A stretch of 64,000 bases of DNA. Origin: Halomonas socia. Its GTDB lineage: Bacteria; Pseudomonadota; Gammaproteobacteria; Pseudomonadales; Halomonadaceae. Position numbers and translations under genes: made by a program. Shown here in pieces: positions 4,239-57,104 of the stretch. The notes beneath the pieces were generated by a model that was not told the DNA's origin, searched no databases, and saw only the letters and a list, made by a program, of their open reading frames with translations. Positions within the stretch are counted from its first letter, which is position 1. Every line of letters starts with the position of its first letter. The DNA is taken from assembly GCF_010977575.1 (NCBI RefSeq), contig NZ_CP048812.1:1984001-2048000 (forward strand), given 5' to 3'.

Positions 4239-4325
4239 GCCGGCGTGGCGGAATTGGTAGACGCAGCGGATTCAAAATCCGCCGGGTGCAAGCCCTTGTC
4301 GGTTCGAGTCCGACCGCCGGTACCA
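4239..4325 (+). tRNA. tRNA-Leu (anticodon CAA)
   Basis: The 87 bases fold as a class II tRNA. The acceptor stem is GCCGGCG paired with CGCCGGT (a terminal G-U pair), the anticodon stem GCGGA/TCCGC encloses the loop TTCAAAA (anticodon CAA), a long variable arm follows, then the T arm with GGTTCGAGTCC. CCA is encoded. The tRNA is convergent with the adjacent island integrase and is the presumed attachment site. Confidence 0.95.
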
Positions 4326-4331
4326 GTTAGA

Positions 4332-4364
4332 AAACAGTCGCTTACGAGCGGCTGTTTGCGTTTC
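4332..4364 (+). terminator. Rho-independent terminator after tRNA-Leu
   Basis: An 11-base-pair stem (4332-4342 with 4347-4357, one G-T pair) with the tetraloop TACG is followed by GCGTTTCT. It overlaps the last bases of the convergent integrase gene. It may act in both directions. Confidence 0.7.
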
Positions 4365-38677: not shown

Positions 38678-38715
38678 CACGCGCTCTACCGTTCTTCCCA
38701 TCCCATCACATCAGC

Positions 38716-38739
38716 GCCGGCGCCTTGCCGGCTTTTTTT
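38716..38739 (+). terminator. Rho-independent terminator upstream of the DUF932 gene
   Basis: GCCGGC, a 5-base loop, GCCGGC and then seven T, 18 bases before the DUF932 start. It ends the zinc-ribbon gene transcript or acts as an attenuator. Confidence 0.75.
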
Positions 38740-38756
38740 CGTCAAGGAGCTTTTCC

Positions 38757-39725
38757 ATGGCACATCTGATCGAGCAAATGGCTTACGTGGGCGACACCCC
38801 CTGGCACGGCCTGGGGCAGCAGCTGTCGCGTCATCAACCGCTGGCGGTCTGGCGGCAACAGGCCGGCATGGACTGGCACATCGAATCTTCCCCGGTTCGC
38901 TTCATCGCCGATGGCGCGGGGCACCTCGGCAGCATCCACTCCTTCCCTGAGCAGAAGGTCCTATATCGCTCGGATACCCGGGCACCGCTGTCGGTGGTCT
39001 CGCAGCGATACAAGGTGGTCCAGCCCGAGGAGGTGCTGGAGTTCTACCGCGACCTGACCGAGTACGCCGGCTATGAGCTGGAGACCGCCGGGGTGCTCAA
39101 GGGCGGTCGAAAATTCTGGGCGCTGGCCCGCAGCGGCCTGGGCACGGCCTTGAAGGGGCAGGACCAGGTTAACGCCTACCTGCTGCTGGCCACGTCCTGT
39201 GACGGCTCCCTGGCGACGGTGGCGACCCCAACCTCGGTGAGGGTGGTGTGCAACAACACCCTGACTATTGCTGTGGACGGCATGGCCCAGGGCGTGAAGG
39301 TGCCGCACAGCACGGAGTTCAACCCGCAGCGGGTCAAGCAGCAGCTGGGCATCTCGGTCTCCCAGTGGGACGACTTCATGTACCGCATGAGGACCCTGGC
39401 CGAGCGCAAGGTCAGCCAGGAGGAAATCAAGTCCTACTTCCAGTCGGTGATCTGCAACGCCGAGGAGCCGCTGGACGATCCCTCCAAGCTGCCCAACGTG
39501 CGGGCGCTGAACCGCGTCCAGAAGCTCTACCAGGGCGAAGGACGGGGCTCGCAGCTCTGCACGGCCCAGGGCACCGCCTGGGGCCTGCTCAACGCCATTA
39601 CCGAGTACGTGGACCACGAGAAGCGTGCCCGCAGCAACGACTACCGCATGGATTCCGCCTGGTTCGGCCAAGGGGCCAGCCTCAAGGACAAGGCCCTGGC
39701 GTCGGCCATGGCGCTGATCGCCTGA
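38757..39725 (+). CDS. DUF932 protein (phage/plasmid-like)
   Basis: The 322-residue protein matches DUF932, common in phages, plasmids and islands beside recombination genes. The family start is evident (MAYVGDTPWHGLGQQLS), with the core LATSCDGSLATVATPTSVRV and VCNNTLTIAV, and the C-terminal NAITEYVDHEKRARS with DSAWFGQGASLKDKAL. CAAGGAG lies just upstream of the ATG. The role is unknown, but association with ERF and YqaJ suggests recombination-linked DNA processing. Confidence 0.85.
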   Translation: MAHLIEQMAYVGDTPWHGLGQQLSRHQPLAVWRQQAGMDWHIESSPVRFIADGAGHLGSIHSFPEQKVLYRSDTRAPLSVVSQRYKVVQPEEVLEFYRDLTEYAGYELETAGVLKGGRKFWALARSGLGTALKGQDQVNAYLLLATSCDGSLATVATPTSVRVVCNNTLTIAVDGMAQGVKVPHSTEFNPQRVKQQLGISVSQWDDFMYRMRTLAERKVSQEEIKSYFQSVICNAEEPLDDPSKLPNVRALNRVQKLYQGEGRGSQLCTAQGTAWGLLNAITEYVDHEKRARSNDYRMDSAWFGQGASLKDKALASAMALIA

Positions 39726-39757
39726 TCAACAATCATCCCAACCCCATCACGGCATAG

Positions 39758-39790
39758 CGCCCGGCCCACCAAGGCCGGGCGTTTCTGTTT
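39758..39790 (+). terminator. Rho-independent terminator after the DUF932 gene
   Basis: CGCCCGGCC pairs with GGCCGGGCG around a 6-base loop, followed by TTTCTGTTT. Confidence 0.8.
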
Positions 39791-39802
39791 CTGGAGGACT
39801 CC

Positions 39803-39988
39803 ATGTCATCGCCAATGTCATTCGAGATCTGCCGCGCCCTGACCCAACTGACGCGTCAGCTGCTGGGCGCCAATGAACGTGAAACGCAAACCCACGTACT
39901 GGCCGAGGGCCGGGTCTACCGCGTGGTCGTGTCGCTGGAGCCTGTCCCTGCTGAGCAGCTCCATGAAGTCATCAACCGCTACCTGTAA
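39803..39988 (+). CDS. Small hypothetical protein
   Basis: 61 residues, no family recognised. It has a good ribosome site (CTGGAGG 6 bases before the ATG) and sits snugly between the DUF932 terminator and the ERF gene, 10 bases upstream of the latter. That makes it likely to be translated. Confidence 0.55.
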   Translation: MSSPMSFEICRALTQLTRQLLGANERETQTHVLAEGRVYRVVVSLEPVPAEQLHEVINRYL

Positions 39989-39998
39989 GGAGGCCAAC

Positions 39999-40760
39999 AT
40001 GGCAACCACCACCCAACCAACGCATTCATCCAAGCCATCTGGGCATAACGGCCAGGTGCCGGCGGCCCAGCCACTGCAGGAGAGCACCGCGATCATCCAG
40101 GTGATCGAGCGTGCCGCCCTCAACCCCGAGGTCGATATCGACAAGATGGAGCGCCTGCTGCAGATGCAGGAGCGCGTCCTCGACCGTCAGGCGCTGATGG
40201 CCTACAGCGCCGGCATGGCGGCCATGCAGACGGAACTGCCGAGCATTACCGAACGAGGCCAGGGCAACAACGGTGGCTACGCCACACTGGAGGATATCGT
40301 CGACACCGTGCGCCCGATCATGCAGCGCCACGGGTTTGCGGTGAGCTTCCGTATTCAGACCCAGGAGCGTGGTATTCAGGTCACCGGCGTGCTGATGCAC
40401 CAGGGGGGGCATCGCGAGGAGACCAGCATGCTGCTGCCGGCGGACGTCAGCGGCAACAAGAACGCCGTACAGGCCTTCGGCTCATCCACCAGCTACGGCA
40501 AGCGCTACGTGCTGTGCGCGCTGCTCAATATCACCACCCGTGGCCAGGACGACAACGGCCAAGGCGCCGCGCCCCCGATAAAGGTGGTCACGCCGTTCCA
40601 GGCGAGTCAGCTCAAGCAGCTGATCACGGCCTGCCCTGTGACCACCCAGGAGTGGTTCGTCGGCAAGTACGGCGAGGTCGAGCGGGTACCCCGCGACGAC
40701 TTCGACAAGCTGCGCGCCTCCCTACAGAAGCGAGCCTTACCCAACCATCAACGTCATTGA
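39999..40760 (+). CDS. ERF-family single-strand annealing protein
   Basis: Phage-type recombinase that pairs complementary single strands. The family motif ITERGQGNNGGYATLEDIVD lies near residue 80, followed by VRPIMQRHGFAVSFRI and the conserved SSTSYGKRYVLCALLNITTR. AAGGAGG lies 7 bases upstream of the chosen ATG (39999); further upstream in-frame ATGs would run into the previous gene. With the YqaJ nuclease next door it forms a Red-like exonuclease/annealase pair. Confidence 0.85.
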   Translation: MATTTQPTHSSKPSGHNGQVPAAQPLQESTAIIQVIERAALNPEVDIDKMERLLQMQERVLDRQALMAYSAGMAAMQTELPSITERGQGNNGGYATLEDIVDTVRPIMQRHGFAVSFRIQTQERGIQVTGVLMHQGGHREETSMLLPADVSGNKNAVQAFGSSTSYGKRYVLCALLNITTRGQDDNGQGAAPPIKVVTPFQASQLKQLITACPVTTQEWFVGKYGEVERVPRDDFDKLRASLQKRALPNHQRH

Positions 40761-40818
40761 GCGATCGGCGAGGGATACCCCTCGCCGCTATGCCGTGGTG
40801 TCTCGAAGGAGGTTTGTC

Positions 40819-41430
40819 ATGCATATCCTGACACTGGAGCAAGGCACGCCCGAGTGGCATGCCGCACGCCTCGGTATCGTCACCATGTCCGAGCTGAAAA
40901 CCCTACTGGTCAAGGGCAAGGGGCCGGGAGGCTTCGGTACTGGCGCCATCAGCTACATGCATCAGCTGATCGGTGAGCGCATTACCGGCGAGCCCAGCGA
41001 TGGCTTCCAGGGCAATGCCCACACCCAGCGTGGCCATGCACTGGAGCCGATCGCGCGAGAGCTCTACCAGGAAGCCACTGGCCTGCCTCGCCTCGAGCAG
41101 GTCGGCATCATCCTCAACCACGGGGTTGGCTATTCCCCTGACTGCCTGGTGGACAGCAACGGCCTGGCCGAGATCAAGACCAAGCTGCCAAAGTACCAGA
41201 TCGAGCTGCTGCTGGACGGTGAGCTGCCTCAGGAACACGTGGCCCAATGCCAGGGAGGCCTGTGGGTCAGCGAGCGGGAATGGATCGACTTCGTCAGCTA
41301 CTGGCCGGGAATGCCGCTGTTCATGAAGCGCGCCTACCGGGACGAGGCGCTGATCAAGACCATCGCCGAGCGGGTTGAGGCGTTCTACGAAGAAATGGAG
41401 CGCCGCATGGCGCAAGTGATGGCGGCCTGA
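40819..41430 (+). CDS. YqaJ-family viral recombinase nuclease
   Basis: Exonuclease of the lambda-exonuclease/YqaJ kind, 203 residues. Active-site motifs: QGTPEWHAARLGIVTMSEL at the N-terminus, TQRGHALEPIARELYQEATG, the acidic SPDCLVDSNGLAEIKTK (catalytic D and E-x-K) and the HVAQCQGGLWVS helix. The start is taken at MHILTLEQG, preceded by GAAGGAGG. It probably resects double-strand ends for the ERF annealing protein. Confidence 0.88.
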   Translation: MHILTLEQGTPEWHAARLGIVTMSELKTLLVKGKGPGGFGTGAISYMHQLIGERITGEPSDGFQGNAHTQRGHALEPIARELYQEATGLPRLEQVGIILNHGVGYSPDCLVDSNGLAEIKTKLPKYQIELLLDGELPQEHVAQCQGGLWVSEREWIDFVSYWPGMPLFMKRAYRDEALIKTIAERVEAFYEEMERRMAQVMAA

Positions 41431-41441
41431 GGAGAGACACC

Positions 41442-41939
41442 ATGAACCATCGCAAGCTGAGTGCCGGCGAAACCGCCGGTACCTATCGCATCACCGACAC
41501 GGTGACCGAAGCGGAGCTGCTGAGCATCGCCAAGGCCTTCGCCCGTCGCCGGCTGGCCAGAGGACGCAAGATCACCCAGCCAGCACTGGCCTTCGAGTAC
41601 CTGCAGATCCTGCTGCAGGACTACGAGCACGAGGTGTTCAGTGCCATCTTCCTCGACAGCCAACACCGCGTCATATGCTTCGGGGAGCTGTTCCGCGGCA
41701 CCATCGACTCGGCCAGCGTCTACCCGAGGGAGGTCGTCAAACAGGCGTTAGCCTGTAACAGCGCCTCTGTAATACTGGTTCACAATCATCCAAGTGGCGA
41801 TCCCGAGCCCAGCGACGCTGACCGGCGCATCACCCAGCGCCTGAAGGACGCGCTGGGGCTGGTGGAGGTGCGGGTCATCGATCATGTCGTGGTCGGGGGT
41901 GAGGGATGTGCTTCCCTTGTGGAGTTGGGGTACTTGTAA
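41442..41939 (+). CDS. RadC-family JAB-domain protein
   Basis: 165 residues with the JAMM metal site: ELFRGTIDSASVYPREVV and the signature VHNHPSGDPEPSDADRRIT. The N-terminal helix-hairpin-helix of housekeeping RadC is missing, as in the short mobile-element versions. Starts 12 bases after the YqaJ gene and closes the module. Function of the family is not settled. Confidence 0.88.
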   Translation: MNHRKLSAGETAGTYRITDTVTEAELLSIAKAFARRRLARGRKITQPALAFEYLQILLQDYEHEVFSAIFLDSQHRVICFGELFRGTIDSASVYPREVVKQALACNSASVILVHNHPSGDPEPSDADRRITQRLKDALGLVEVRVIDHVVVGGEGCASLVELGYL

Positions 41940-41990: not shown

Positions 41991-42205
41991 CAAATCGCAG
42001 CTTAATTTTTTGTGAAACAGTCACTAGATGGATGATACTGTGGAATATTAGAGTGATACGGCCCTCTTTAGACTGGTTAACTGATATTGCATCGTTCGAG
42101 CGGAACGCAGGAAGCGATTACCACTGAAGGTCAGATAGTGGCGCTTGCACGAGTGCATGCAAAGATTGAGAATGTATGCATTGAGTGCGGTGGGGGACTT
42201 TGAAC

Positions 42206-42460
42206 ATGGCCATGCTGACTGTACGCAACCTGCCTGACGAGGTGCATCGCGCCCTGCGTGTCCGTGCAGCGCTGCACGGGCATAGCATGGAAGCGGAGGT
42301 GCGTGAGATCCTAGAAGCCGCTGTAGCGCCCGAGGGCCGCGTCAAGCTGGGCTCTCTACTGGCCGATATTGGCCGCCAGGCCCAGCTAACCGATGAAGAG
42401 TTCGCTGCCTTTGGGGATGTCCGCGACAAGACCCCAGCCCGTCCGGCGAACTTCGAATGA
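42206..42460 (+). CDS. FitA-like ribbon-helix-helix antitoxin
   Basis: Antitoxin of a type II pair. The ribbon-helix-helix is LTVRNLPDEVHRALRVRAAL, then HGHSMEAEVREIL; the toxin-binding tail runs to PARPANFE. The ATG at 42206 follows GGGGGA; ATG 42212 is an alternative. Its stop overlaps the toxin ATG in the ATGA style. It likely represses its own promoter together with the toxin. Confidence 0.85.
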   Translation: MAMLTVRNLPDEVHRALRVRAALHGHSMEAEVREILEAAVAPEGRVKLGSLLADIGRQAQLTDEEFAAFGDVRDKTPARPANFE

Positions 42461-42882
42461 TCCTGCTCGACACCAACGTCATCTCCGAACCGCTGCGCCG
42501 GGAGCCAGAGGCCCGCGTCATCGAGTGGATCGATACCCAGCCCTTGGAAACCCTCTTTCTCTCCGCCATCACCGTGGCTGAGCTGCGGGCTGGCATAGCG
42601 CTGCTATCTGCTGGAAAGCGCCGGGCTGGATTGCAAGAGAACCTTGAGAAGCGGGTATTGCCACTGTTCGCTGGGCGCGTTCTGTCATTCGACCTTCCCT
42701 GTACGCAGGCCTACGCGGAGTTGATTGCCAGGGCTCGGAAGGCAGGGCTCGCTATGGCAGCGGCTGATGGCTATCTCGCAGCCATTGCGGCTGCCAATGG
42801 ATTGTCCGTAGCAACGAGAGACACCAGCCCATTTGAGGCGGCAGGCACAGCGGTGATCAACCCTTGGAATGCTAGTGCCTGA
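42457..42882 (+). CDS. FitB/VapC-like PIN-domain toxin
   Basis: PIN-domain ribonuclease of 141 residues. The acidic active-site residues are visible in MILLDTNVISE (D), TVAELRAGI (E), the MAAADGYLAAIA segment (D) and LSVATRDTSPFE (D). Length and pattern match FitB-type toxins. Cotranslated with the antitoxin. It lies directly upstream of the methyltransferase operon and may help keep the region in the genome. Confidence 0.88.
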   Translation: MILLDTNVISEPLRREPEARVIEWIDTQPLETLFLSAITVAELRAGIALLSAGKRRAGLQENLEKRVLPLFAGRVLSFDLPCTQAYAELIARARKAGLAMAAADGYLAAIAAANGLSVATRDTSPFEAAGTAVINPWNASA

Positions 42883-42954: not shown

Positions 42955-45701
42955 ATGAACGCAGTAGAAATCGAGGCAGCAATATCAGACCTGGCGCTCC
43001 AGCCCTTTGACCCGGCTGAGTTCCCCTATGCCTTTCTGGAAGCCTTCGGCAACAAGGCCACGACCATCAAACGGTTGCGCTCGGGTGCGTCCAACAAGTC
43101 CGACCTGGGCGGCGTGCTGCAGACCAACAATATCCATATCGCTGTTGCTGACGCCGAGGACGTCACGCAAACCCTTGCGGCCCTTAAAGCCAGCCCAGCG
43201 ACCACTCGTGCTAAGGCGCGGTACATCCTGGCAACCGATGGCGCGGACTTCGAAGCCGAGGATCTGGAAACCGGCGAAACTGTTGCTTGTACCTATGAGG
43301 CCTGTCCCGATCACTTCGGCTTCTTCCTGCCCTTGGCGGGCATCACCACCGTCAAGCAGGTGCGCGACAGCTCCTTTGACATCCGCGCTACCAGCCGCCT
43401 GAACCGTCTGTATGTCGAGCTGCTGAAGGAAAACCCCGACTGGGGCACGGAAGAACAGCGCCACGAAATGAACCACTTCATGGCGCGCCTGATCTTCTGC
43501 TTCTTCGCGGAAGACACCGACATTTTTGCCGGTAGCGGCCTGTTCACCGATACCGTGGCCCAGATGAGCGCCAGAGATTCCGCCAACACCCACGAGGTAA
43601 TCAGCGAAATCTTCCGCGCCATGAATACCAAGCAGGCCGAGCGTGCGGCAGCCAACATCCCGCGCTGGGCAGATGACTTCCCCTATGTGAATGGCGGGCT
43701 CTTTTCGGGCAGCGTAGAGGTGCCGCGCTTCAGCAAGATTGCGCGCTCCTACCTGCTGCATATCGGCAGCCTGGACTGGACCCAGATCAACCCCGACATT
43801 TTCGGCTCCATGATCCAGGCGGTCGCGGATGACGAAGAGCGTGGCGCGCTGGGCATGCATTACACCAGCGTGCCTAACATCTTGAAGGTGCTTAACCCAC
43901 TATTCCTGGACGACCTGCACGAGAGGCTGGAGGATGCGAGTGACAACCCCCGAAAGCTGCTCAATCTGCGCAATCGCATGGCCAGAATTCGCGTGTTTGA
44001 CCCGGCATGTGGCTCAGGCAACTTCCTGGTCATCGCCTACAAGAAAATGCGCGCCATCGAAGCCGAGATCAACCAGCGCCGAGGGGAACCGAATCGGCCT
44101 ACCGAGATCCCGCTGACCAATTTCCGGGGCATCGAGCTGCGAGACTTCTCAGCCGAGATTGCCCGGCTTGCCCTGATCATTGCCGAGTACCAGTGTGACC
44201 TGCATTATCGGGGCAAGAAGCTGGCACTGGCCGAGTTTCTGCCGTTGGACTCCCAGAACTGGATTACCTGCGGGAATGCCCTGAGGCTGGATTGGCTCAG
44301 CATATGCCCACCCACAGGAACAGGGGTAAAGCTCCATGCGGATGACCTATTTGATTCACCGCTGGATCAGGCACAGATCGACTTCGAGAACGAGGGCGGG
44401 GAAACCTATATTTGCGGTAACCCGCCTTATCTTGGGTCCAAGAAAAAAAGTAAGCAGCAATCGGATGATATGGCGATAGTTGGGCTATCCAAGGCACAGC
44501 TTTTAGATTATGTCGCGGCATTTATCGTTAAAGGCTTAGATGTAGTCAGTCGAACGGAATGCAGTATGGCGTTAGTGTCTACTAGCTCTATTTGTCAAGG
44601 AGAGCAAGTCTCTCTCCTTTGGCCTAAAATTTTTTCTAAAGCTTCAATCGATTTTGCCTATCAACCTTTTAGGTGGGCAAATTCTGCAGCAAGGAATGCC
44701 GGCGTATATTGCACTATTATTGGCTTGTCAAAAGAAGAAAAAAACCAAAGCGCCTTTATTCTGAGGGTAGCTTAAAGCTTTGCGATAGCATTTCCCCATA
44801 CTTGGTATCGGGCCCAAAGGTTATTTGTACTCCCCGTGATACTCCACTATCCAATCTTTCTAAGATGAAAATGGGGAGTAATGCTGTAGATGGCAAGAAC
44901 CTCATTCTTGAGAGAGAAGACCGTGACTTAATTATTTCTCAATGGCCCGAAGCATCTCGTTTTATACATAAATATGGCGGAACTAAAGAGCTGGTGTCGG
45001 GTATGCATCGCTGGTGCGTATGGGTTGACGATAGAGATTTAGAGGCCGCGCTCAACGTGCCGCCTATAGCAGAAATTATTGAAAATTGTAGAGCTTACCG
45101 CATTAACGCAGGACGAGATGCTCGAAAAGCATCGAAAAGACCACACGCTTTCTGCTATTCAACTTATGAGGAAAAAGAGTTTATTCAGGTGGGAAATACA
45201 ATTGGTAATTCTCTTTCTCATGTTCCAGTTGAAGTTCGTGGTAAAGGTTTTGTTTCCAATCATAATGCATTTACGATATATGGCTTGTGTTTGGTTGAAT
45301 TCTCGGTGATAATTTCTACGTTGCATAAAGTGTGGGCGGAAACAGTTTCGGGCCGACTGGGTAATGGGACGAGATATGGGAATACGGTCGTATATAACAC
45401 ATTCCCTTTTCCTGATTTAACGGAAAAGAATAAGTTTGACCTTTCCCAGTCTGCAGAGCGCATTCTTCTGGAAAGAGAAGCTCACTTTCCTGCCACCATT
45501 GCCGACCTGTACGACCCCGAAAAGATGCCAGCCAACCTACGTGAAGCCCACGAGCAAAACGACGAAGTGCTGGAGCGCATTTACATCGGCCGTCGCTTTA
45601 AGAACGATACTGAGCGCCTGGAAAAGCTATTCGAGCTATACACTAGGATGACGGCTTCCTCTCCCTCGAAAAGCAAGATACAGCGGGGTGCATTCAGATG
45701 A
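42955..45701 (+). CDS. MmeI-like N6-adenine DNA methyltransferase, frame broken at an A7 run
   Basis: A large SAM-dependent adenine methyltransferase of the MmeI-like architecture. The helical spacer NHFMARLIFCFFAEDTDIF is at 173-191. Motif I FDPACGSGNF is at 348-357 and the catalytic NPPY is at 489-492. A target-recognition region and the MmeI-type C-terminus (LYDPEKMPANLREAHEQNDE) follow. The first frame ends at 44775. The rest continues in another frame through 45701; the frames meet at seven A (44738-44744), where an eighth A would give one protein of about 915 residues. The N-terminus lacks a visible D...E-x-K nuclease, unlike MmeI. The recognition region is far more AT-rich than the flanks. 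Its stop overlaps the next gene (ATGA). Confidence 0.85.
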
Positions 45702-46489
45702 GCGGCTACGTGTTCTTTCAAATGTGGGAACCATTCCGACAGTCGCTGATTGCCGGGCACCTCTTCTACATTGAACAAGCGCAAAAGCGTTTGCTATCGC
45801 AGTTTGCCAATATTGAGCACGAGGCTGATATGGCTGCTGAGCGCTGGCTGGAAGAGAATGGCCACCATTTTGATCCAGACCGTCACGACCCGGGGGAGTT
45901 CGAAGAACGGGCGTATGACGCCAGTGTGGAGTTCTATGGACTGATGTGCGACTTGCGTGAGCAAACCAAGCTGAGTGTTGTGGCGGGCATGTACCATGAA
46001 TGGGAAAAGCAGCTGCGGGATTGGCTAGTGAGAGAAATCCAGCATTGGCATCGAGGCTCAAGCGTCAAGCGAGCCGTTTGGAAGGTGCATTTAGGCAAGG
46101 TAATGGACTTGCTGGAAGAGTTGGGCTGGAACGTGCGCGATACAGATTTTTTCCCTCGTATTGATGCCTGTCGACTAGTGATCAATGTCTACAAGCATGG
46201 TGAGGGAGACTCACTGGATGAGTTGAAGAAAAAGTATCCTCAGTATCTGAATGACCCGTTCAGGGAGTCAGAAGAGCCCCATTTCGGCGCGGACTACCTG
46301 GACTTTACTCGATTGAAGGTGACTCCCGAGCATGTTCAAGAGTTTTCGGATGCTATTGTCTCCTTCTGGAAAGCAGTACCTGACAATATCCAAGATCACG
46401 AAGGCTTGTCAGTCCCGGACTGGTTTGCCAAGGCCATGTTGAGTGATCAGCAAGCTGCAAGCTATCAGCAAGGAGGCCCAAATCCATGA
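45698..46489 (+). CDS. Hypothetical protein within the methyltransferase operon
   Basis: 263 residues, family not recognised, predicted helical and cytosolic. A stretch RLVINVYKHGEGD near residue 165 recalls the R...H signature of HEPN-type proteins, but the match is too weak to call. Overlaps by 4 bases both the methyltransferase stop and the RhuM start, so it is clearly part of that operon. Confidence 0.65.
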   Translation: MSGYVFFQMWEPFRQSLIAGHLFYIEQAQKRLLSQFANIEHEADMAAERWLEENGHHFDPDRHDPGEFEERAYDASVEFYGLMCDLREQTKLSVVAGMYHEWEKQLRDWLVREIQHWHRGSSVKRAVWKVHLGKVMDLLEELGWNVRDTDFFPRIDACRLVINVYKHGEGDSLDELKKKYPQYLNDPFRESEEPHFGADYLDFTRLKVTPEHVQEFSDAIVSFWKAVPDNIQDHEGLSVPDWFAKAMLSDQQAASYQQGGPNP

Positions 46490-47496
46490 GCGAGCTAATT
46501 CTCTATACCACGGATGATGGCCGAACCCAGCTTCACCTTCGGGTGGAAGCCGATAGCATCTGGCTAAGCCAGTTGGAAATTGCCGAGCTGTTCCAGACCA
46601 CCAAGCAGAATGTCTCCCTGCACGCAAAAAATATATTTGAAGACAATGAGTTGTCCCCGAAAGCAACTGTCAAGGAATCCTTGACAGTTCAGCCCGAGGG
46701 CAAGCGCCAGGTGAAGCGGCGGATCAGTTACTACAACCTGGACCTGATCCTGGCGATCGGTTATCGCGTGCGCTCGCCGCGGGGCGCGCAGTTCCGCCAA
46801 TGGGCGAGTAGCCACCTCAAGGAGTTCTTGCTTAAGGGCTTCGTGATGGATGACGAGCGCCTGAAGAACCCAGGTGGCTGGGACTATTTCGACGAGCTGC
46901 TGGAGCGCATCCGGGATATCCGGGCCTCTGAGAAGCGCTTCTACCAAAAGGTCCGCGATCTGTTTGCTCTCAGCTCCGACTACAAGGCCCGTGAACAGGA
47001 AACCGCGCTGTTCTTTGCCGAGGTGCAGAACAAGCTGCTCTATGCCGCCACCGGCCACACGGCCGCAGAGCTGATCCTGAAACGTTCAGATCCCAGTCAG
47101 CCCAACATGGCCTTGACCAGTTGGAGTGGTTCGCGGGTGCGCAAGCAGGATGTCATCATCGCCAAGAACTACCTGAGTGCCGACGAGATAGACACCCTCA
47201 ACCGCCTGGTGGTGATCTTCCTTGAGCAGGCAGAGCTGCGGGTCAAGCAGCAGAAGGAGCTGACCCTCGACTTCTGGCGTAACAACGTCGGCAAGATGCT
47301 GGCCTTCAATGACCAGCCCATTCTCGAAGGTGCAGGCTCGGTTAGCCGCGAGAACATGGAGAAGATTGCCCGTGAGCGTTATGAGGTTTTCGACCAGCAG
47401 AGGCGTATTGTGGAGGCAAAGGCAGCCGATGCCGCTGACCTGAAGGAAATCGAACAACTGGAACAAGACCTCAAGCACAAGGACAAGAAGCCCTGA
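46486..47496 (+). CDS. RhuM-family protein
   Basis: Matches the RhuM family: the N-terminal DNA-binding-like LSQLEIAELFQTTKQNVSLH, then AKNIFEDNEL, the KRRISYYNLDLILAIGYRVR core and SPRGAQFRQWASSHLKEFLL. The C-terminal half has ETALFFAEVQNKLLYAATGH and a coiled-coil tail. RhuM was named in a Salmonella pathogenicity island, but most homologues sit in mobile and restriction-modification loci. The 4-base overlap with the previous gene places it firmly in this system. Biochemical role unknown. Confidence 0.85.
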   Translation: MSELILYTTDDGRTQLHLRVEADSIWLSQLEIAELFQTTKQNVSLHAKNIFEDNELSPKATVKESLTVQPEGKRQVKRRISYYNLDLILAIGYRVRSPRGAQFRQWASSHLKEFLLKGFVMDDERLKNPGGWDYFDELLERIRDIRASEKRFYQKVRDLFALSSDYKAREQETALFFAEVQNKLLYAATGHTAAELILKRSDPSQPNMALTSWSGSRVRKQDVIIAKNYLSADEIDTLNRLVVIFLEQAELRVKQQKELTLDFWRNNVGKMLAFNDQPILEGAGSVSRENMEKIARERYEVFDQQRRIVEAKAADAADLKEIEQLEQDLKHKDKKP

Positions 47497-47510
47497 CAGG
47501 TATCGCAACT

Positions 47511-49568
47511 ATGACAAAGATCGTACCCTCTGTTTCCGTCTCTTATGCGAGCAATGGCAGCTCCACCAAATCCAATGCCCTGGGCATGCGGCCCATGCAG
47601 GAACGCGCCTACGAGCGGCGGGGCGAGAAATACCTGCTGATCAAGTCCCCGCCGGCCTCTGGCAAAAGCCGGGCCCTCATGTTCATCGCGCTGGACAAGC
47701 TCCACAACCAAGGGCTCAAGCAAGCCATTATCGTGGTGCCGGAAAAGTCTATCGGCTCCAGCTTCAACGACGAGCCATTGAGCGACTACGGCTTCTGGGC
47801 CAACTGGCACGTGGAGCCAAAATGGAACCTGTGCAATGCACCGGGCTCTGACAACGGCGGCAAGGTAAAATCGCTAGGCGCGTTTCTCGCCAGTGACGAC
47901 CAGGTACTGGTGTGCACCCACGCCACTTTCCGTTTTGGCGTCGATCAGTTTGGCGTTGCTGCCTTCGACGACCGACTGATTGCCGTGGATGAGTTCCACC
48001 ACGTCTCGGCCAACCCCGACAACAAGCTCGGTACCCATCTGGGCGAGTTCATCGCCCGCGACAAGGTACATATTGTAGCCATGACGGGCTCCTATTTCCG
48101 GGGTGATGCCGAAGCGGTATTGGCACCCCAGGACGAATCGTGCTTCGATACCGTCACCTACACCTACTATGAGCAACTCAACGGCTACGAGTACTTGAAG
48201 CAGCTCGACATTGGCTATTACTTCTACTCTGGTTCCTACGCCGATGACATCCTCAAGGTGCTCGACCCGGCTGAGAAGACTATCGTCCATATTCCCAACG
48301 TCAATTCCCGTGAAAGCAGCGGGCAGAAGATCAAGGAAGTCGAACACATCTTCGAGGAGCTCGGTGAGTGGCAAGGCTCTGATCCGGTGACGGGTTTCCA
48401 ACTGGTGAAAATGCCTGGGGGAAGAGTTCTGAGGATCGCTGATCTAGTTGATCAAGAACATCAAGGACGGATACAGGAAAGTCTCAGAGCTCCGTCAATG
48501 AAAACAGACCGGGACTACGTTGACATCATTATCGCGCTGGGCATGGCCAAGGAGGGTTTCGACTGGATCTGGTGCGAACATGCGCTGACGGTGGGCTACC
48601 GCTCCAGCCTGACGGAGATTGTACAGATCATCGGCCGCGCTACCCGGGATGCGCCCGGCAAGACACGGGCGCGCTTCACCAACCTGATTGCGGAGCCCGA
48701 CGCCGCCGAGCAGGCCGTGACGGAAGCCGTCAACGACACCCTGAAAGCCATAGCGGCTAGCCTGCTGATGGAGCAGGTGCTGGCACCGCGCTTCGAGTTT
48801 AAGCCCAAAAACCCCACCAGCGGCCCTCAGGAGGGCTTCGACTATGGTGAAGGGGGCTATGACCCAAGCAAATGCAATATCGGCGTCAACGAGGAAACCG
48901 GCAAGTACCAGGTAGAGATCAAGGGTCTGGCAGAACCGAAAAGCGATGAGGCCACCCGTATTTGCCAGGAAGACCTGAACGAGGTGATTGCCAGCTTTGT
49001 GCAAGACAAAAACACTATCGAGCGCGGCCTGTTCGATGAGGAACTGGTGCCTGAAGAACTCACCCAGGTGCGCCTGGGCAAGATCATAAAGGACCGTTAC
49101 CCCAACCTCGACGAGGAAGACCAAGAAGCCGTTCGACAACATGCCATCGCCGCGCTGAACCTCACTCAGCAGGCCAAGCAGCTACTGGTGGGCGGCGAAG
49201 CCATTGACGTGGGTAGCGATGAATCCAAGCCAAACACGGCGCTGATAGCCGGCGTGCGCAAATTTGCCATGGATGTGCGGGAGCTCGATATCGATCTGAT
49301 CGACCGCATCAACCCCTTCAGTGAGGCCTATGCGATCCTAGCCAAAACCATGAGCGAAGACAGCTTGAAGCAGGTGGCGGCGGTCATCTCCGGCAAGCGC
49401 ACCAGTCTGACGCCAGAGGAAGCCAAGGAGCTCGCCATGAGAGCGGTCAAGTTCAAGAAAGAGCGAGGGCGCCTGCCTTCAATCAGCTCGCAGGATGCTT
49501 GGGAACAGCGCATGGCCGAAGGCGCGGCCGCGTTCGTGCGCTACAAAGACGAGGGCCGTTATGACTGA
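47511..49568 (+). CDS. DEAD/DEAH-type helicase of restriction type
   Basis: Superfamily 2 helicase/translocase of 685 residues. Walker A PPASGKS (47-53), DEFH box (160-163), motif III-like MTGSY (191-195) and motif VI QIIGRATR (372-379) are present. The last 250 residues have no recognised domain. Its stop overlaps the GIY-YIG nuclease start by 8 bases, implying tight coupling. In restriction systems such a motor moves along DNA and activates a nuclease, which is its probable job here together with the next gene. Confidence 0.85.
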   Translation: MTKIVPSVSVSYASNGSSTKSNALGMRPMQERAYERRGEKYLLIKSPPASGKSRALMFIALDKLHNQGLKQAIIVVPEKSIGSSFNDEPLSDYGFWANWHVEPKWNLCNAPGSDNGGKVKSLGAFLASDDQVLVCTHATFRFGVDQFGVAAFDDRLIAVDEFHHVSANPDNKLGTHLGEFIARDKVHIVAMTGSYFRGDAEAVLAPQDESCFDTVTYTYYEQLNGYEYLKQLDIGYYFYSGSYADDILKVLDPAEKTIVHIPNVNSRESSGQKIKEVEHIFEELGEWQGSDPVTGFQLVKMPGGRVLRIADLVDQEHQGRIQESLRAPSMKTDRDYVDIIIALGMAKEGFDWIWCEHALTVGYRSSLTEIVQIIGRATRDAPGKTRARFTNLIAEPDAAEQAVTEAVNDTLKAIAASLLMEQVLAPRFEFKPKNPTSGPQEGFDYGEGGYDPSKCNIGVNEETGKYQVEIKGLAEPKSDEATRICQEDLNEVIASFVQDKNTIERGLFDEELVPEELTQVRLGKIIKDRYPNLDEEDQEAVRQHAIAALNLTQQAKQLLVGGEAIDVGSDESKPNTALIAGVRKFAMDVRELDIDLIDRINPFSEAYAILAKTMSEDSLKQVAAVISGKRTSLTPEEAKELAMRAVKFKKERGRLPSISSQDAWEQRMAEGAAAFVRYKDEGRYD

Positions 49569-50745
49569 TCTGGACGAATTGCGCACCGAGCTGGATGAGT
49601 TCGCCCAGCCCGAAAAGAAGAAAGGCTACTCCGCGTCCGCGCGCGAAGAACGCATCATCGCCGGCTTCGAAGAGATCCAGCGCTTTGTCGAGCAGCATGG
49701 ACACGCCCCCCAGCACGACGAAGACAGAGACATCTTTGAACGGCTCTACGCAGTGCGGCTGGACCGTATACGCGCTCTTGAGGAATGCCGAACCCTGCTG
49801 ACACCGCTGGATCATCAAGGGCTGCTTAGTGGCGACTACGCGGCCGAGGCGGAGCCAGTGGAGGCGATGGACGACGACGCATTGCTCGAAGAACTGGCAG
49901 GAGCTGCCGGACCTCCCGAACTCACTGAACTACGCCATGTGAGGTCTAGTGCCGAGAAACGGGTCGCCGAGGAAATCGCCAACAGGGAGAAGAGTGAGGA
50001 CTTTGAAGCCTTCAAACCGCTATTCGAGCAGGTGGAAAATGAGCTGCGGTCCGGCCTGCGCAAGACTCGCCCATTCGGTAAAAATGCCACTATTGAGGTG
50101 AGTCAGTGGTTCATCTTGGACGGACAAACTGCCTATGTGGCTGATGAGGGTGAAGAATTTGATTCGCCCCAAGGCAAAAAGGATGCGCGCTTGCGGGTGA
50201 TTTTTTCCAATGGCACGGAAAGCAACCTGCTGCGCTTGTCGCTAGTACGGGCGTTATACAAGGACGAAGCAAGCCGCCGGATAACTGAACCTGACGCTGG
50301 TCCCCTGTTCAGTGAGACCTGGGAAGACGACGACATAGAGAGCGGAACTATCTATGTGCTGCGCAGCCTCTCTGAGCATCCGTTCGTGGCCGAACACCGG
50401 GAACTGATTCACAAAATCGGCGTCACTGGCGGTAAGGTGGAAGCCCGCATCGCAAACGCCACGCACGATGCCACCTACCTGCTGGCTGATGTCGAAGTAG
50501 TTGCCACCTACAAGCTCGCCGGCATCAACCGCCGCAAGCTGGAAGCTCTCTTCCATCGTGTCTTTGCGCCGGCGCAGCTTGAGCTGACCATTCAGGATCG
50601 CTTTGGGCACCCGGTGAAGCCTAGAGAGTGGTTCCTGGTACCACTATCAGTAATTGACGAGTCTGTTGATCGGATTAAGGATGGATCTATTACTAGAGTG
50701 GTTTATGATCCGGAGAGTGCTCGGCTCTCCAAGCGTCAAGAGTGA
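49561..50745 (+). CDS. GIY-YIG-family nuclease
   Basis: 394 residues. The C-terminal third is a GIY-YIG nuclease of the T5orf172-like kind: TIYVL (263-267) and HKIGVTGG (284-291) make the two signature strands. A conserved R (296), an E in RKLEALFHRVF (328) and the closing PREWFLV complete the site. The first 250 residues are acidic and helical without a recognised fold. The ATG at 49561 overlaps the helicase stop. It is the only obvious nuclease of this five-gene operon. Confidence 0.85.
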   Translation: MTDLDELRTELDEFAQPEKKKGYSASAREERIIAGFEEIQRFVEQHGHAPQHDEDRDIFERLYAVRLDRIRALEECRTLLTPLDHQGLLSGDYAAEAEPVEAMDDDALLEELAGAAGPPELTELRHVRSSAEKRVAEEIANREKSEDFEAFKPLFEQVENELRSGLRKTRPFGKNATIEVSQWFILDGQTAYVADEGEEFDSPQGKKDARLRVIFSNGTESNLLRLSLVRALYKDEASRRITEPDAGPLFSETWEDDDIESGTIYVLRSLSEHPFVAEHRELIHKIGVTGGKVEARIANATHDATYLLADVEVVATYKLAGINRRKLEALFHRVFAPAQLELTIQDRFGHPVKPREWFLVPLSVIDESVDRIKDGSITRVVYDPESARLSKRQE

Positions 50746-50877: not shown

Positions 50878-51624
50878 ATGGCGACGAACAGCAAAATTGA
50901 ATGGACTGAGCAGACATGGAACCCCGTCACAGGTTGTACTAAGGTCTCTCCAGGATGCAAACATTGCTATGCGGAAGTTATGGCCAAACGCCTACAAGCT
51001 ATGGGTGTTCCCGGGTATGAACATGGCTTTGCAAAAGTTAGTTTGATGGAAGAGCGACTTAATCAACCGCGTTATCGAAAAAAGCCAACAGTCTTTTTCG
51101 TAAATTCCATGAGCGATTTATTTCACGAAGACGTGCCAGACTCCTTTATTGATCAGGTGCTTAATACCATTGAGGCTTGTCCTCAACATGCCTTTCAAGT
51201 TCTGACAAAGCGGGCTTTGCGCATGAGGCAATATTTTGAGACTCGGACCGTGCCTGATAATGCATGGCTCGGTGTTTCTGTAGAAGATAAAAGTTATGGC
51301 AAGCCTCGTATTGGTGAGCTCCAAAAAATCCATGCCAAGACTCGTTTTTTATCGGTCGAGCCGCTCCTTGAGGATCTTGGTCAACTTCCGCTGATTGGAA
51401 TAGCTTGGGTCATTGTTGGCGGAGAGTCAGGTTCCAAGGCGCGACCCATGAAAGAGTCTTGGGCTGTTAACATAAAGCGCCAGTGCTTGGCAAACGGAGT
51501 GGATTTCTTCTTTAAGCAATGGGGGACATGGGGGCAGGATGGAGTAAAAAGATCCAAAGCTGCCAACGGTCGCACTTTGGCAGGTCAAACTTGGGATATG
51601 ATTCCAGCGATTGTGGTTTGCTAA
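50878..51624 (+). CDS. Phage Gp37/Gp68-family protein (three-Cys motif)
   Basis: 248 residues of the Gp37/Gp68 (DUF5131) family. The cysteine cluster WNPVTGCTKVSPGCKHCYAE (C20, C27, C30; CX6CX2C) is the three-Cys motif thought to bind an iron-sulfur cluster in a radical-SAM-like way. Family segments FVNSMSDLFHEDVPD, FQVLTKRALRM and GESGSKARPM are present. The next gene, 29 bases on, is its usual partner TcmP. Genes of this pair recur in defence islands; function unproven. Confidence 0.87.
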   Translation: MATNSKIEWTEQTWNPVTGCTKVSPGCKHCYAEVMAKRLQAMGVPGYEHGFAKVSLMEERLNQPRYRKKPTVFFVNSMSDLFHEDVPDSFIDQVLNTIEACPQHAFQVLTKRALRMRQYFETRTVPDNAWLGVSVEDKSYGKPRIGELQKIHAKTRFLSVEPLLEDLGQLPLIGIAWVIVGGESGSKARPMKESWAVNIKRQCLANGVDFFFKQWGTWGQDGVKRSKAANGRTLAGQTWDMIPAIVVC

Positions 51625-51653
51625 GAAATATAACAAACGATGAAGGGCATGGC

Positions 51654-52838
51654 ATGGCTATTGTTCCTGTGGAGTATCTAGGTCGAGAGCAGGCCTTCTT
51701 GAAACACACGATTCTGAAGACCTATCTTGAGCGCCTGTTCATGATCATTGGCAGGCGTGAGATCGTCATAAATTACGTTGATTGTTTTGCTGGTCCGTGG
51801 TCAGAAGAATCACCACAGCTGGACGATACATCGATTGGAATTTCCATTAAGATAATGAAGGATGCGGCGCAATCCCTCAGGAAAGTTTTCGGTAGGGAGG
51901 TGCGATTCAGAGCCCTTTACATCGAAAAAGACCCAGCCGCATACAGAAAGTTGGACCAGTTCCTAACTGTCAACAACCATGCTCCCGTAGAAACCTATAG
52001 CATCTACGGCGACTACATGGAGTACACTGATTATATCGCGAAGTGGACGCAAGGGTGCTTTACGTTTTTCTTCGTTGATCCCAAAGGCTGGAAAGAAGTC
52101 ATCAGTGAAGAAACTCTCAGGCCTCTTCTGGAATTGGATAATGTGGAGTTTCTTATCAACTTGATGTACGATTTTGTTAATCGGGCTGTTAACATTGAGA
52201 CGCTTAATGATCAGATTAAGTCACTTCTCGGTCAATCGCCCAGTTTTACAGGATCTGAATCAGCCATGCAACGCCAGCGGTGGGTGTTGACGAAATACAG
52301 AGAATCAGTAAACCGGTCCTATAGTGGCAGAACCGCATTTGTGCCGGTCGAACGACCAGGTAGAGACCGGGTGCTTTATTTCCTGATATATTTAACCCGA
52401 CACCCAGTTGGCATCAGTGTTTTTAAGGAAGTGGCTGAAGACATGAATATGGTTCAGCGGATCACTCAGGCTGAAACAAAGCTACGTAACCAAGTGGAAA
52501 AATCGCCAACGTCCGATCTGTTCGCAGAGGAACCGGGTTCGATGGCACTGGTCGATACCCACGATAATAGGCTATCAGCTAAGTCTTTCTTGGTTAATAA
52601 ACTATCCGAGCGGCCTCTGCTAATCGACAATGAGTGCTGGGCAGGTTTCTTGGAAGAGACAGACTTCTATCCTTCTGACATTCAGATGGCGATGAAAGAA
52701 CTGATACATGATGGTGTTGTTACAGTTATAGGTAAGGATATCAAAAATATTAAAAGGCGTATTAAAAAGCCAATTAAGCCCGATTGGCCAAGAAAGAGTG
52801 AGAAGTGGGTGATAATTGTGCCAGAATCGCAAAAGTGA
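51654..52838 (+). CDS. tcmP: Three-Cys-motif partner protein TcmP
   Basis: 394 residues matching the family found next to Gp37/Gp68 proteins. The N-terminal half looks like a Rossmann-type methyltransferase fold (YVDCFAGPWSEES, FRALYIEKDPAAYRKLDQF, FTFFFVDPKGWKE). The C-terminal half carries winged-helix-like segments. The ATG at 51654 has GAAGGG just upstream; there is no room further 5' because of the previous stop at 51624. AT-rich like its partner. Role unknown. Confidence 0.85.
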   Translation: MAIVPVEYLGREQAFLKHTILKTYLERLFMIIGRREIVINYVDCFAGPWSEESPQLDDTSIGISIKIMKDAAQSLRKVFGREVRFRALYIEKDPAAYRKLDQFLTVNNHAPVETYSIYGDYMEYTDYIAKWTQGCFTFFFVDPKGWKEVISEETLRPLLELDNVEFLINLMYDFVNRAVNIETLNDQIKSLLGQSPSFTGSESAMQRQRWVLTKYRESVNRSYSGRTAFVPVERPGRDRVLYFLIYLTRHPVGISVFKEVAEDMNMVQRITQAETKLRNQVEKSPTSDLFAEEPGSMALVDTHDNRLSAKSFLVNKLSERPLLIDNECWAGFLEETDFYPSDIQMAMKELIHDGVVTVIGKDIKNIKRRIKKPIKPDWPRKSEKWVIIVPESQK

Positions 52839-53362
52839 AAAGCCAGTTTTTGATGCTGTCTGGGTAATCGCTACAGGGTCACCTGCAGGGCCTGCGGTGA
52901 CTGCTGAAGAGCCGGACACGCCAGGGGTGGACCTGATGCGGATGCGCGGGCAGGTGCTTAAGGTGGCCGCGACACTGTCGCTGCACGCCAGGCGCATCAC
53001 CGTGTACCTCGGCGATGCCGCCGACAGATGGTGGTCCACCTTGCTTTGCTGAAGGGGCTGCCTCGACTAACGGCACTGGTCGCTTCTGCGGCGGCACCCA
53101 CGGCATGCCAATGGCTGCCATGGCACTGCTCTGAAGGCTCCTGGAGAGCCAGCTCTGCGAGGAAGGGACCTCCTTTTCACCTACAGTGAGGCACACGCTC
53201 TGATAGAAGCCGCGCCTCGCTTGACGCAGCGACAACGTTGTATTTTAGAAGCGACGGGGTGTCCGCTCCAGTTAGACCAGTTCATCGATTGCTGATGGTA
53301 ACATCAGGTAAATAATGCTTTGGTGTGTAAAACGAGACCGATAACGAGCAAGGGGAAGGCGT
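52839..53362. other. Intergenic region with a possible transposase scrap
   Basis: About 520 bases between TcmP and the TerB gene. On the plus strand near 52940-53045 a short frame reads RMRGQVLKVAATLSLHARRI then TVYLGDAADRWW, reminiscent of the C-terminus of IS1380/IS4-type transposases, but without ends or more similarity. The base composition jumps from AT-rich to GC-rich at about 52870. No gene is called. Confidence 0.35.
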
Positions 53363-55722
53363 GTGGAAGGGATATGGCTCATCATACTCGCCATTGGGGG
53401 GATCTGGTTCTTAAGCCGCTTGCTCGGGGGAGGCGTGATGGGGGTAGCGGGCACCCTGGAACTCGCTCATCTTCCCCGGAGCGCACAGACGCGAAGCCGC
53501 GCTTCACCATCGAGGTACGCTATGACCGACATGACGAGGACGACGATCCTTTGCCGAATGCGAATGTGACCGCGCAAAGCTGCTGGGTGCCAGCCGGCAC
53601 CAGCAAGGCTGTGCGCGGCATTACCATTACGCGTGGTCGCGTCTTTGTGGGTAGCGGGCTTGCCGCGGGTAATGAATATGGCGTCGAGCCCTCCCTGGTG
53701 AACCCTGATCTGACGGTGGACTTTCCTAGCGCCGATCGTCAGGGGCTCGAGCTTGGCTACTGGCCTCAATACCATCGCATCGGCCCCCAGGCACGAGCGG
53801 GCTACCTGCAGTTCCTGGCCAGCGACCGTGACGATCCGCGCGCCCCGATGGGGTTCGTCTTCCTTTATTTCTACGGGATGGAGCGGCGCCTGCTCGTTGA
53901 TGCTCAGTATCCCGGTATCGATGAGGCGGAATACCAGGATCTGGTTGCCGAGATCGAGCGCTTGTTGATCGTCTACGATCACAGCAGCAGCTTCCGGGGC
54001 TATGCGAACGGCCTGCTCGACTACCTTTGGGTCAAGCGAGCCTCACCGGACAAGCCCGGAGCAGCTCCCACGCTTCGTGATAGACGCCACCATTTGCCTG
54101 TCTCCTTGCAGGTTGACCTTGGGATGTTCTCGACCACTCAGCGCCCCATCCCTGCGGAGTGGGCCTATGCTTGGATTATGCAAGATCCACAGTTTCAATT
54201 CCGGCAGCGCAAGGCCAGCGAGCGCTGTATCGAGGAGTTCCGGGAACTGTTCAAGGCCCTCTATCTGCAGCGCCATGGCGAAGGGCTCGTCGTGAAACCG
54301 AACAAGACAATGATCAAGGCGGAATACAAGCCTGCCAGCCCCGGGCTGCCGTATTTTTCCGAGCCCTTGGATCTGCCGAACATCACCATCCTCAAGGGTC
54401 CCACCGACAAGCTGGCCGCATTGGTCGACTCCTGCTGTGAGCAGCTCGCCGCATACAGCCGCTTCATTGGCCGCCACCCCGATCGCAAGGACAGTCTCGA
54501 AGCGCTCTCGCTGCTGCCGGCAGCGCTTGCCGCCGAGACAAAATCCGCTGACGTTGCAACCTTGGAGGACGCGTTGAGACAGCGTCTGGATAGTCACGCT
54601 TTCTTTAGAGTGCCCTTCTCTGAGTTGGTGTTAGGCGAAGCTGCTGCCAGCGCCAGCAAGCCGAGCGCGAAAAGCATGCGGGGACTGGCCGGGTTATTGG
54701 AACATTCCGGCATTGGCATAGAGCCGGATGCACGCTATACCGCTGCAGTGCCCGACCTAGAAGGCGACTGCATCCTCTTTGCGGTTCAGGGAGAGAGCGA
54801 GCTTCCCCCGAGTGACGATTTCGAGCACGCTGCCGTGGTCATGCGGCTTGCGGGTTTTGTGCTGTACGGGCAGGTCGACAGCCTGACTGATCGACATACC
54901 GCCGTCATCGACGACTTCCTGGGTGGCTTCAGTTCGCTCACGTCCTTGGAGACCCAGCATCTCAAGGCTTATTTCTACTGGGAGATGGGAAGGAAGTCGA
55001 CCCTCGCCGGCATGCGTAAACGCGTGGATGGCATGAGCCATAAGGATCGGGCCGAGCTCGAGCAGGTGCTTGTGAAGTTGGCTAGTGCAGATGGTGTCGT
55101 CGATACCCATGAGCTCAAGAAGCTCAGGCGCACTGCGAGCCTACTGGGCCGGGATCCGGAGGCCTTGTACTCGCAAATCCACTCGGTGATGGCGGAACCT
55201 ACCTTGGTTCGGCCAGCCAGCGCCAACGCCACGGGGTTCCGTATTCCTGATCCTGCGGTTGAGCCGGCCCCGGCGTCATCGAAGCGAAAGCCCCTGGATG
55301 CGGCGGCCATCCAGCACAAACGCCAGGAAACTGAGCACATATCCGACGTACTACATGGGATATTCGGTGAACAAGCTTCGCCAGGTGAAGCTGACAGACC
55401 CGCTGCACCGCATGGGGAGGAGCTCCAGGAAATGCTGGACGGAGCGTCCGGGGCACCGGCCGAGGATGACAGCGCGACTGCCGGGCGCCTGGGCGGGCTC
55501 GACGCAGCGCATCTTTCCCTCTTGGCCGCGATTGCCCAACAAGCGGACGGGCTACCTCGAGGAGAGGCCGAAGCCATGGCTGTTGAGCTGAAGTTGATGC
55601 TGGCAGGTGCCCTGGACCGCATTAACGAGGCCGCTTTCGAGATGACCGATGCCCCTGTTATCGAAGAGGCCGGTGGGGCACTGGTGGTAGACAACGAGAT
55701 TCTGGAGGAGATGAGAGGGTGA
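53363..55722 (+). CDS. TerB-N/TerB-domain protein with N-terminal membrane anchor (frame break)
   Basis: The GTG at 53363, after AGGGGAAGG, starts a membrane helix (EGIWLIILAIGGIWFLSRLL). After about 25 codons the frame breaks in G-rich sequence near 53425-53445. The main protein continues in another frame to 55722 from about GTRSSSPERTDAKPRFTIEV. It contains the TerB-N domain (FVGSGLAAGNEYGVEPSLVN, LEYLWVKR-like NGLLDYLWVKRA), a central helical region, a TerB-like calcium-binding-type domain (about LVKLASADGVVDTHELKKLR) and a TerB-C-like tail. One added base restores an anchored protein of about 785 residues. Its stop overlaps the ATPase start, so the trio is an operon. Confidence 0.75.
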
Positions 55723-57092: not shown

Positions 57093-57104
57093 GAACGACA
57101 GTGC

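What the first reader, a model, noticed from the sequence alone, without database searches (positions are those of the whole stretch)
42955..50745. Five-gene operon: MmeI-like methyltransferase without its nuclease, unknown protein, RhuM, helicase, GIY-YIG nuclease
The genes overlap by 4 or 8 bases or are about 15 bases apart, so they behave as one unit. MmeI-type enzymes carry their nuclease (D...E-x-K) in front of the helical spacer, but here the residues before NHFMARLIFCFF show no such motif. Cutting may instead be done in trans by the GIY-YIG protein, powered by the SF2 helicase. RhuM and the 263-residue protein would be extra, unexplained parts. I know of no described defence system with exactly this set, though I could not search.
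Basis: partly seen in the sequence, partly recalled or inferred. Interest (0 to 1): 0.78.

Follow-up and report, generated by a model that had tools for sequence, protein, structure and literature searches.

The report
Known restriction operon with swappable cargo
This is a known kind of bacterial DNA-restriction operon (methyltransferase, helicase, nuclease) carrying two extra genes in a spot where relatives carry different extras or none, and its methyltransferase gene is split in two in this genome.

Summary
(1) The MmeI-like gene is two overlapping ORFs here (42955-44775 and 44673-45701), split at an A7 tract; in 40 of 41 relatives the two halves lie in one frame. (2) The core is already described: MmeI-like methyltransferase without nuclease motif + SF2 helicase + GIY-YIG protein is DnmA(YeeA)-YeeB-YeeC, for which a Type I-like restriction system was proposed in 2009. 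The five-gene set is not a conserved unit. In 31 sampled loci the core keeps order and strand (the nuclease lies off the contig in one). The methyltransferase-helicase junction holds cargo in 16 of 31, against 1 of 30 at the helicase-nuclease junction. Cargo differs between relatives: RhuM, PD-(D/E)XK proteins, YhcG, the 263-aa protein, an OLD-like ATPase and others. Here it is the 263-aa protein (PHROG 19541, function unknown) plus RhuM. Three of five RhuM relatives inspected directly follow hsdM in type I operons. Best reading: a Type I-like restriction system with embedded accessory defence genes, predicted off in this genome unless the split is a sequencing error. New parts: the cargo slot and the 263-aa family.

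The parts
42955..44775 (+). 5' piece of the DnmA/YeeA-type (MmeI-like) methyltransferase: degenerate N-terminal domain, helical spacer, methyltransferase domain (CGSG, NPPY)
   Evidence: Pfam MmeI_N 2.1e-33, MmeI_hel 2.9e-26, MmeI_Mtase 2.8e-106; PADLOC PDLC03598 positions 26-599; NPP in 41 of 41 relatives
44738..44744 (+). A7 tract where the reading frame of the methyltransferase changes
   Evidence: intact frame in 40 of 41 relatives
44673..45701 (+). 3' piece of the methyltransferase: target recognition and C-terminal domains, in another frame (homology starts about codon 21)
   Evidence: Pfam MmeI_TRD 6.6e-57, MmeI_C 6.2e-18; PDLC03598 positions 595-910
45698..46489 (+). 263-aa cargo protein, PHROG 19541, function unknown; invariant N-x2-K-H-G-x-G
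   Evidence: no Pfam/PADLOC/NCBIfam match; phrog_19541 2.8e-63; alignments
46486..47496 (+). RhuM cargo protein
   Evidence: Pfam Virulence_RhuM 6.1e-111; PADLOC PDC-S05 1.6e-149
47511..49568 (+). YeeB-type SF2 helicase
   Evidence: Pfam DEAD 1.1e-05, just under its cut-off, and ResIII 8.5e-05; Walker A and DExH residues unchanged in 41 of 41 relatives; plasmid relatives up to 84% identical
49561..50745 (+). YeeC-type protein with C-terminal GIY-YIG/T5orf172 nuclease domain
   Evidence: Pfam MUG113 3.1e-13, T5orf172 2.6e-10; catalytic-type residues unchanged in 39 of 39 relatives

Best explanation
A DnmA-YeeB-YeeC (Type I-like) restriction-modification operon with a cargo slot. The methyltransferase reads an asymmetric site and methylates an adenine (shown for B. 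subtilis DnmA in print, not here). On unmodified DNA the helicase moves along the DNA and the GIY-YIG protein cuts (inferred). The space between methyltransferase and helicase genes repeatedly receives accessory defence or toxin-like genes (shown here by comparison); in this genome it holds a PHROG 19541 protein and RhuM. These most likely act as a second line, like PrrC beside a type I system, released when restriction is blocked or overwhelmed (inferred from context only). Here the methyltransferase is split by a frame change seen in no relative, so methylation and restriction are predicted to be off unless the split is a sequencing error.
For: Core genes in the same order and strand in 31 of 31 sampled loci, nuclease visible in 30. 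Active-site-type residues of helicase and GIY-YIG protein unchanged. No D...(D/E)xK in the methyltransferase N-terminus: where MmeI has D70-E80-K82 (PMC4833311 passages), the window at an offset of 20 has D50-I60-I62, with positions 60 and 62 hydrophobic in 36 of 36 covered relatives (the offset is taken from the alignment start and is not itself aligned). Published genetics: V. crassostreae dnmA and yeeB deletions raised sensitivity to some phages (passage in PMC9973331). Cargo in 16 of 31 methyltransferase-helicase junctions against 1 of 30 helicase-nuclease junctions, Fisher p 2.6e-5 without correction for kinship. Cargo matches Pfam/PADLOC defence or toxin-like families in many loci. RhuM relatives directly after hsdM in 3 of 5 regions inspected. 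Split.
Against: B. subtilis dnmA-yeeB-yeeC did not protect against three phages or affect plasmid uptake and was called a relic. Nothing was measured in this organism. 15 of 31 loci have an empty slot, and the divergent branch nearly always (9 of 10), so cargo is dispensable. Some counted cargo is doubtful: L055 (83-aa low-complexity ORF) and L078 (131-aa ORF near a contig end). The functions of RhuM and the 263-aa protein are unknown.
Confidence: 0.72

Rival explanations
1. The operon is a decaying relic: the methyltransferase now only methylates or does nothing, and the locus persists through neighbouring toxin-antitoxin genes.
For: Methyltransferase split here; B. subtilis locus described as a defunct system; FitA-like/PIN toxin-antitoxin pair directly upstream at 42185-42882.
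Against: No other break in the operon: the rest of the methyltransferase frame and the four downstream genes are open; helicase and nuclease active-site residues kept across relatives; V. crassostreae genetics.
Confidence: 0.2
2. The A7 tract is a switch: ribosomal slippage or reversible tract-length change turns the methyltransferase on and off.
For: The frame change falls on a run of seven A followed by C, and the second piece lies in the -1 frame.
Against: Both halves in one frame in 40 of 41 relatives. RNA 3' of the tract folds no better than shuffles (z 0.29 and -0.60). A second A7 at 44443 in the same gene is read in frame.
Confidence: 0.07
3. A genuine five-component system in which the 263-aa protein and RhuM are required subunits.
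For: Tight overlaps of 4, 4 and 8 nt; the same five genes in L006.
Against: 0 of 31 sampled loci carry both; the slot is empty in 15 of 31 and filled with unrelated genes in others; relatives of both proteins occur away from YeeABC.
Confidence: 0.04

Closest known systems
DnmA(YeeA)-YeeB-YeeC of Bacillus subtilis and its homologues (PMC7261158, PMC9973331: passages; section 8 of the latter)
   Same: Nuclease-less MmeI-like methyltransferase, SF2 helicase, T5orf172/GIY-YIG protein, same order
   Different: Two extra genes between methyltransferase and helicase; methyltransferase split in two ORFs
MmeI (Type IIL)
   Same: Spacer, methyltransferase, target-recognition and C-terminal domains
   Different: No nuclease motif; separate helicase and GIY-YIG genes
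Type I restriction-modification operons with embedded RhuM (L089, L092, L093)
   Same: RhuM directly after the methyltransferase gene and before the helicase/nuclease gene
   Different: One-chain MmeI-like methyltransferase instead of HsdM+HsdS; separate helicase and GIY-YIG protein instead of HsdR
PrrC with type I system PrrI (PMC3710099 passages)
   Same: Proposed logic: an embedded effector as second line when restriction is blocked
   Different: No sequence evidence that the 263-aa protein is a PrrC-like HEPN RNase
Defence genes embedded in other defence systems (Payne et al. preprint 2024; seen only as a citation in PMC12629846)
   Same: Same principle by its title; slot cargo matches several PADLOC PDC families
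   Different: I could not check whether it covers the YeeA-YeeB junction or PHROG 19541

Membership tests
DnmA-YeeB-YeeC | MmeI-like methyltransferase lacking D...(D/E)xK | tested here: met
   D50 kept, E and K positions hydrophobic in 36 of 36 covered relatives
DnmA-YeeB-YeeC | SF2 helicase and T5orf172/GIY-YIG gene downstream on the same strand | tested here: met
   31 of 31 loci with helicase, 30 with nuclease visible
DnmA-YeeB-YeeC | Methyltransferase encoded in one open frame | tested here: not met
   Split in the window; one frame in 40 of 41 relatives. Could be a sequencing error
DnmA-YeeB-YeeC | m6A at one asymmetric site | not testable with these tools
   needs a methylome
MmeI Type IIL restriction enzyme | PD-(D/E)XK nuclease in the same chain | tested here: not met
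Type I restriction-modification | HsdM, HsdS and HsdR subunits | tested here: not met
   Pfam/PADLOC give IIG-type and T5orf172 domains; no HsdS or HsdR match
RhuM family | Virulence_RhuM domain | tested here: met
   E = 6.1e-111
HEPN superfamily (263-aa protein) | Rx4-6H motif in an all-helical fold | tested here: inconclusive
   Invariant N163 and H167 spaced N-x3-H but no conserved arginine just before N; no Pfam or PDB profile match; no structure model
PHROG 19541 (263-aa protein) | Profile match over most of the protein | tested here: met
   24 of 24 members of alignment A3; window residues 7-234

The most novel reading that the evidence does not exclude
The YeeA-YeeB junction is a dedicated exchange site for 'guard' genes. 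The PHROG 19541 protein is an unrecognised HEPN-like RNase held inactive by the restriction core; it stalls or kills the cell when phage anti-restriction disables that core, with RhuM as a third, protein-directed layer. The same guards are traded among YeeABC, type I systems, Gabija neighbourhoods and prophages.
Probability: 0.22. Interest if true: 0.65.

Novelty: new variant of a known kind. Interest (0 to 1): 0.42.

Why it matters
The core occurs in 22 of 398 phylum-sample genomes, the window's own included, has no worked-out mechanism that I found, and its B. subtilis version seemed inactive. A cargo slot that changes between close relatives gives natural with/without pairs to test what RhuM and the PHROG 19541 protein do, and a simple way to look for further embedded defence genes.

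Tried and rejected
New five-gene system: rejected, because the set is not conserved.

Nuclease hidden in the methyltransferase N-terminus: no motif found. A PDB sequence search with the first 169 residues gave only chance hits; the longer query aligned with MmeI only from MmeI residue 104. In one search I first looked at window residues 69, 70, 80 and 82, which use MmeI's numbers without the offset and so say nothing about the motif; one search replaces that. In one search, 14 of 36 relatives show chance matches to the loose motif, nearly all near PDHFGFF...K and not at a conserved place.

Programmed frameshift: no support beyond the A7 tract.

HEPN identity of the 263-aa protein: profile searches of PDB and Pfam found nothing. 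A search for DUF4145 genes to build a comparison gave 4 places in 3 of 56 genomes and was not pursued.

att repeat for a tRNA-Leu island: no exact repeat of 14 or more bases of the stretch 4270-4400 elsewhere in the window.

Relatives of the 263-aa protein in viruses: none in 'phages', none in viral contigs with the single sequence, 34 loci with alignment A2.

Catalogue names: PADLOC gave IIG, PDC-S05, PDC-M30 and Shango, none for the 263-aa or GIY-YIG protein and only weak PbeA hits for the helicase. Paper searches whose listings showed no account of this exact set or slot; most listed papers were not opened, and bioRxiv is not held.

Rows dropped: only 26 GIY rows passed a length filter because the query began upstream of the true start; redid this with all 39. 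One search's 37 methyltransferase rows include truncated ones. L079 was the one row of 41 not in one frame; its C-terminal match was a 117-residue fragment. The tree omits L006, L008 and L078 (helicase incomplete or broken).
Full report
What is there. Searches confirm a same-strand run: methyltransferase, 263-aa protein, RhuM, SF2 helicase, GIY-YIG protein, with overlaps of 4, 4 and 8 nt and a 14-nt gap before the helicase. Pfam and PADLOC put MmeI_N/hel/Mtase on the first ORF and MmeI_TRD/C on the second; PADLOC model PDLC03598 is covered at 26-599 by one and 595-910 by the other. So the 'methyltransferase' is two ORFs, 42955-44775 and 44673-45701, in different frames, meeting at an A7 tract, 44738-44744. 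In 40 of 41 related loci the two halves start in one frame; the exception, L079, has only a fragmentary match. The split was seen in no relative with both halves matched well. It may be real or a homopolymer error; I could not tell. RNA folding beside the tract gives no sign of programmed slippage. None of the 4 other genomes of the genus has the helicase at E <= 1e-60, so there is no close copy to compare.

The core is known. The helicase matches 264 plasmid records, up to 84% identical, one of them annotated YeeB. PMC7261158 and PMC9973331 (passages; section 8 of the latter) describe dnmA(yeeA)-yeeB-yeeC of B. subtilis. They report that Morgan et al. 2009 saw MmeI homologues without a nuclease motif beside helicase and nuclease genes, and that a Type I-like system was suggested. 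In B. subtilis single deletions did not change sensitivity to three phages, and plasmid uptake was unchanged without dnmA. In V. crassostreae, deletion of dnmA or yeeB raised sensitivity to some phages. I did not see Morgan 2009 itself nor the V. crassostreae paper.

Why cutting in trans is plausible. MmeI's catalytic residues are D70, E80 and K82 (PMC4833311 passages). The window protein has no D...(D/E)xK of the usual spacing in residues 1-150. If the offset of 20 seen where the MmeI alignment starts (window 84 to MmeI 104) holds further upstream, D70 falls on D50 and E80/K82 on I60/I62. Position 50 is D in 30 and E in 4 of 36 covered relatives; positions 60 and 62 are hydrophobic in 36 of 36. 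That looks like a nuclease domain that kept its fold but lost its active site; the offset is an inference. Meanwhile the GIY-YIG residues are unchanged in 39 of 39 relatives, helicase Walker A and DExH residues in 41 of 41, and methyltransferase NPP in 41 of 41.

The other two genes are cargo. Helicase hits came from a 398-genome phylum sample (22 with a match, own included) and a 369-genome class sample (12, own and one repeat included), giving 31 loci besides the window. All 31 have methyltransferase and helicase in the same order and strand; 30 also show the nuclease, off the contig in L078. At the methyltransferase-helicase junction 16 of 31 carry 200 nt or more; at the helicase-nuclease junction 1 of 30 (L075) has an insert. 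Fisher p = 2.6e-5, uncorrected for kinship. Cargo is commoner in the window's branch (15 of 21 with helicase identity of at least 64%) than among divergent loci (1 of 10; p = 0.002).

Slot contents in those 31: RhuM (L049, L072, L076); PDDEXK_4/PDC-S26 (L052, L058); YhcG/PDC-S02 (L074; L077 assigned by likeness of its start, not scanned); PDC-S67 (L059); a 276-aa protein with a weak DUF4145 hint plus the 263-aa family (L070); OLD-like AAA_15 (L071); a 327-aa protein plus a RelB-type antitoxin gene and its neighbour (L060); 7-kb mixed inserts (L054, L056); short or unassigned ORFs (L055, L069, L078). Loci found otherwise, not counted above: the 263-aa gene plus Fic (L009, scanned; L010 by likeness), the 263-aa gene alone (L002, L007), toxin-antitoxin genes (L005, annotated), empty (L003, L004). 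On a helicase tree of 39 rows, nine slot states need 18 changes; shuffled mean 20.8, as low in 4 of 200 shuffles. So states are only slightly clustered and cargo turns over fast. Among loci with helicases 82-90% identical to the window's, the slot holds both genes (L006), RhuM alone (L049), the 263-aa gene alone (L002) or nothing (L003, L050, L051).

RhuM. Five plasmid relatives were inspected. Three follow hsdM directly in type I operons (Wohlfahrtiimonas, Aliarcobacter, Neotabrizicola), the same position as here; two lie elsewhere. PMC3710099 (passages) proposed that RhuM is a toxin in a layered defence with R-M and PrrC-like proteins.

The 263-aa protein. It belongs to PHROG 19541, function unknown (24 of 24 members). 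It is rarer than the core: 3 of 398 genomes at E <= 1e-8, the own one and two only 23-26% identical. Relatives occur in 143 plasmid records at E <= 0.01, 78 of them Citrobacter, and in 34 virus contigs. They lie near GajA-GajB in Rhizobium, between Mrr-like type IV genes in Roseomonas, and beside a PD-T4-5-like gene in Acinetobacter; others sit beside nothing obviously defensive. Invariant N-x2-K-H recalls the HEPN motif but lacks its arginine; PMC3710099 lists some HEPN families that keep H without R. Its role as a guard or toxin is inference.

Verdict. The interpretation rediscovers a published idea for the core and overstates the five-gene set. New here, as far as my searches reach (listings mostly, bioRxiv not held): the YeeA-YeeB junction as a fast-changing cargo slot, and PHROG 19541 as one of its cargoes.

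Noticed in passing
53320-59345: A complete Shango defence system: SngA, SngB and SngC PADLOC matches in a row.
   Followed up: partly
50878-52838: DUF5131 gene and three-Cys-motif partner TcmP, matching the PADLOC candidate pair PDC-M30, between the restriction operon and Shango.
   Followed up: no
42185-42882: FitA-like antitoxin and PIN-domain toxin pair directly upstream of the methyltransferase.
   Followed up: no
4239-5406: tRNA-Leu with a phage-type integrase gene beside it, a likely left edge of an island; no att repeat of 14 or more bases found in the window.
   Followed up: partly
38592-41939: DUF932, ERF, YqaJ-like and RadC genes in a row, a set I associate from recall with mobile elements (for the domains).
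   Followed up: no
8490-9809: DDE group 1 transposase gene inside the presumed island.
   Followed up: no
L085:6805-13439: A Rhizobium relative of the 263-aa gene lies between a PDC-S33 gene and, one gene further, a GajA-GajB pair.
   Followed up: partly
L056:2748-9798: A 7-kb insert in the methyltransferase-helicase slot includes a reverse-transcriptase domain ORF and an HTH + M78-peptidase protein whose like is also in L054.
   Followed up: no
L093:5482-14737: A type I operon of Neotabrizicola carries RhuM, a Shedu-family nuclease and a HAD hydrolase among its hsd genes, so type I operons take cargo too (as annotated).
   Followed up: no
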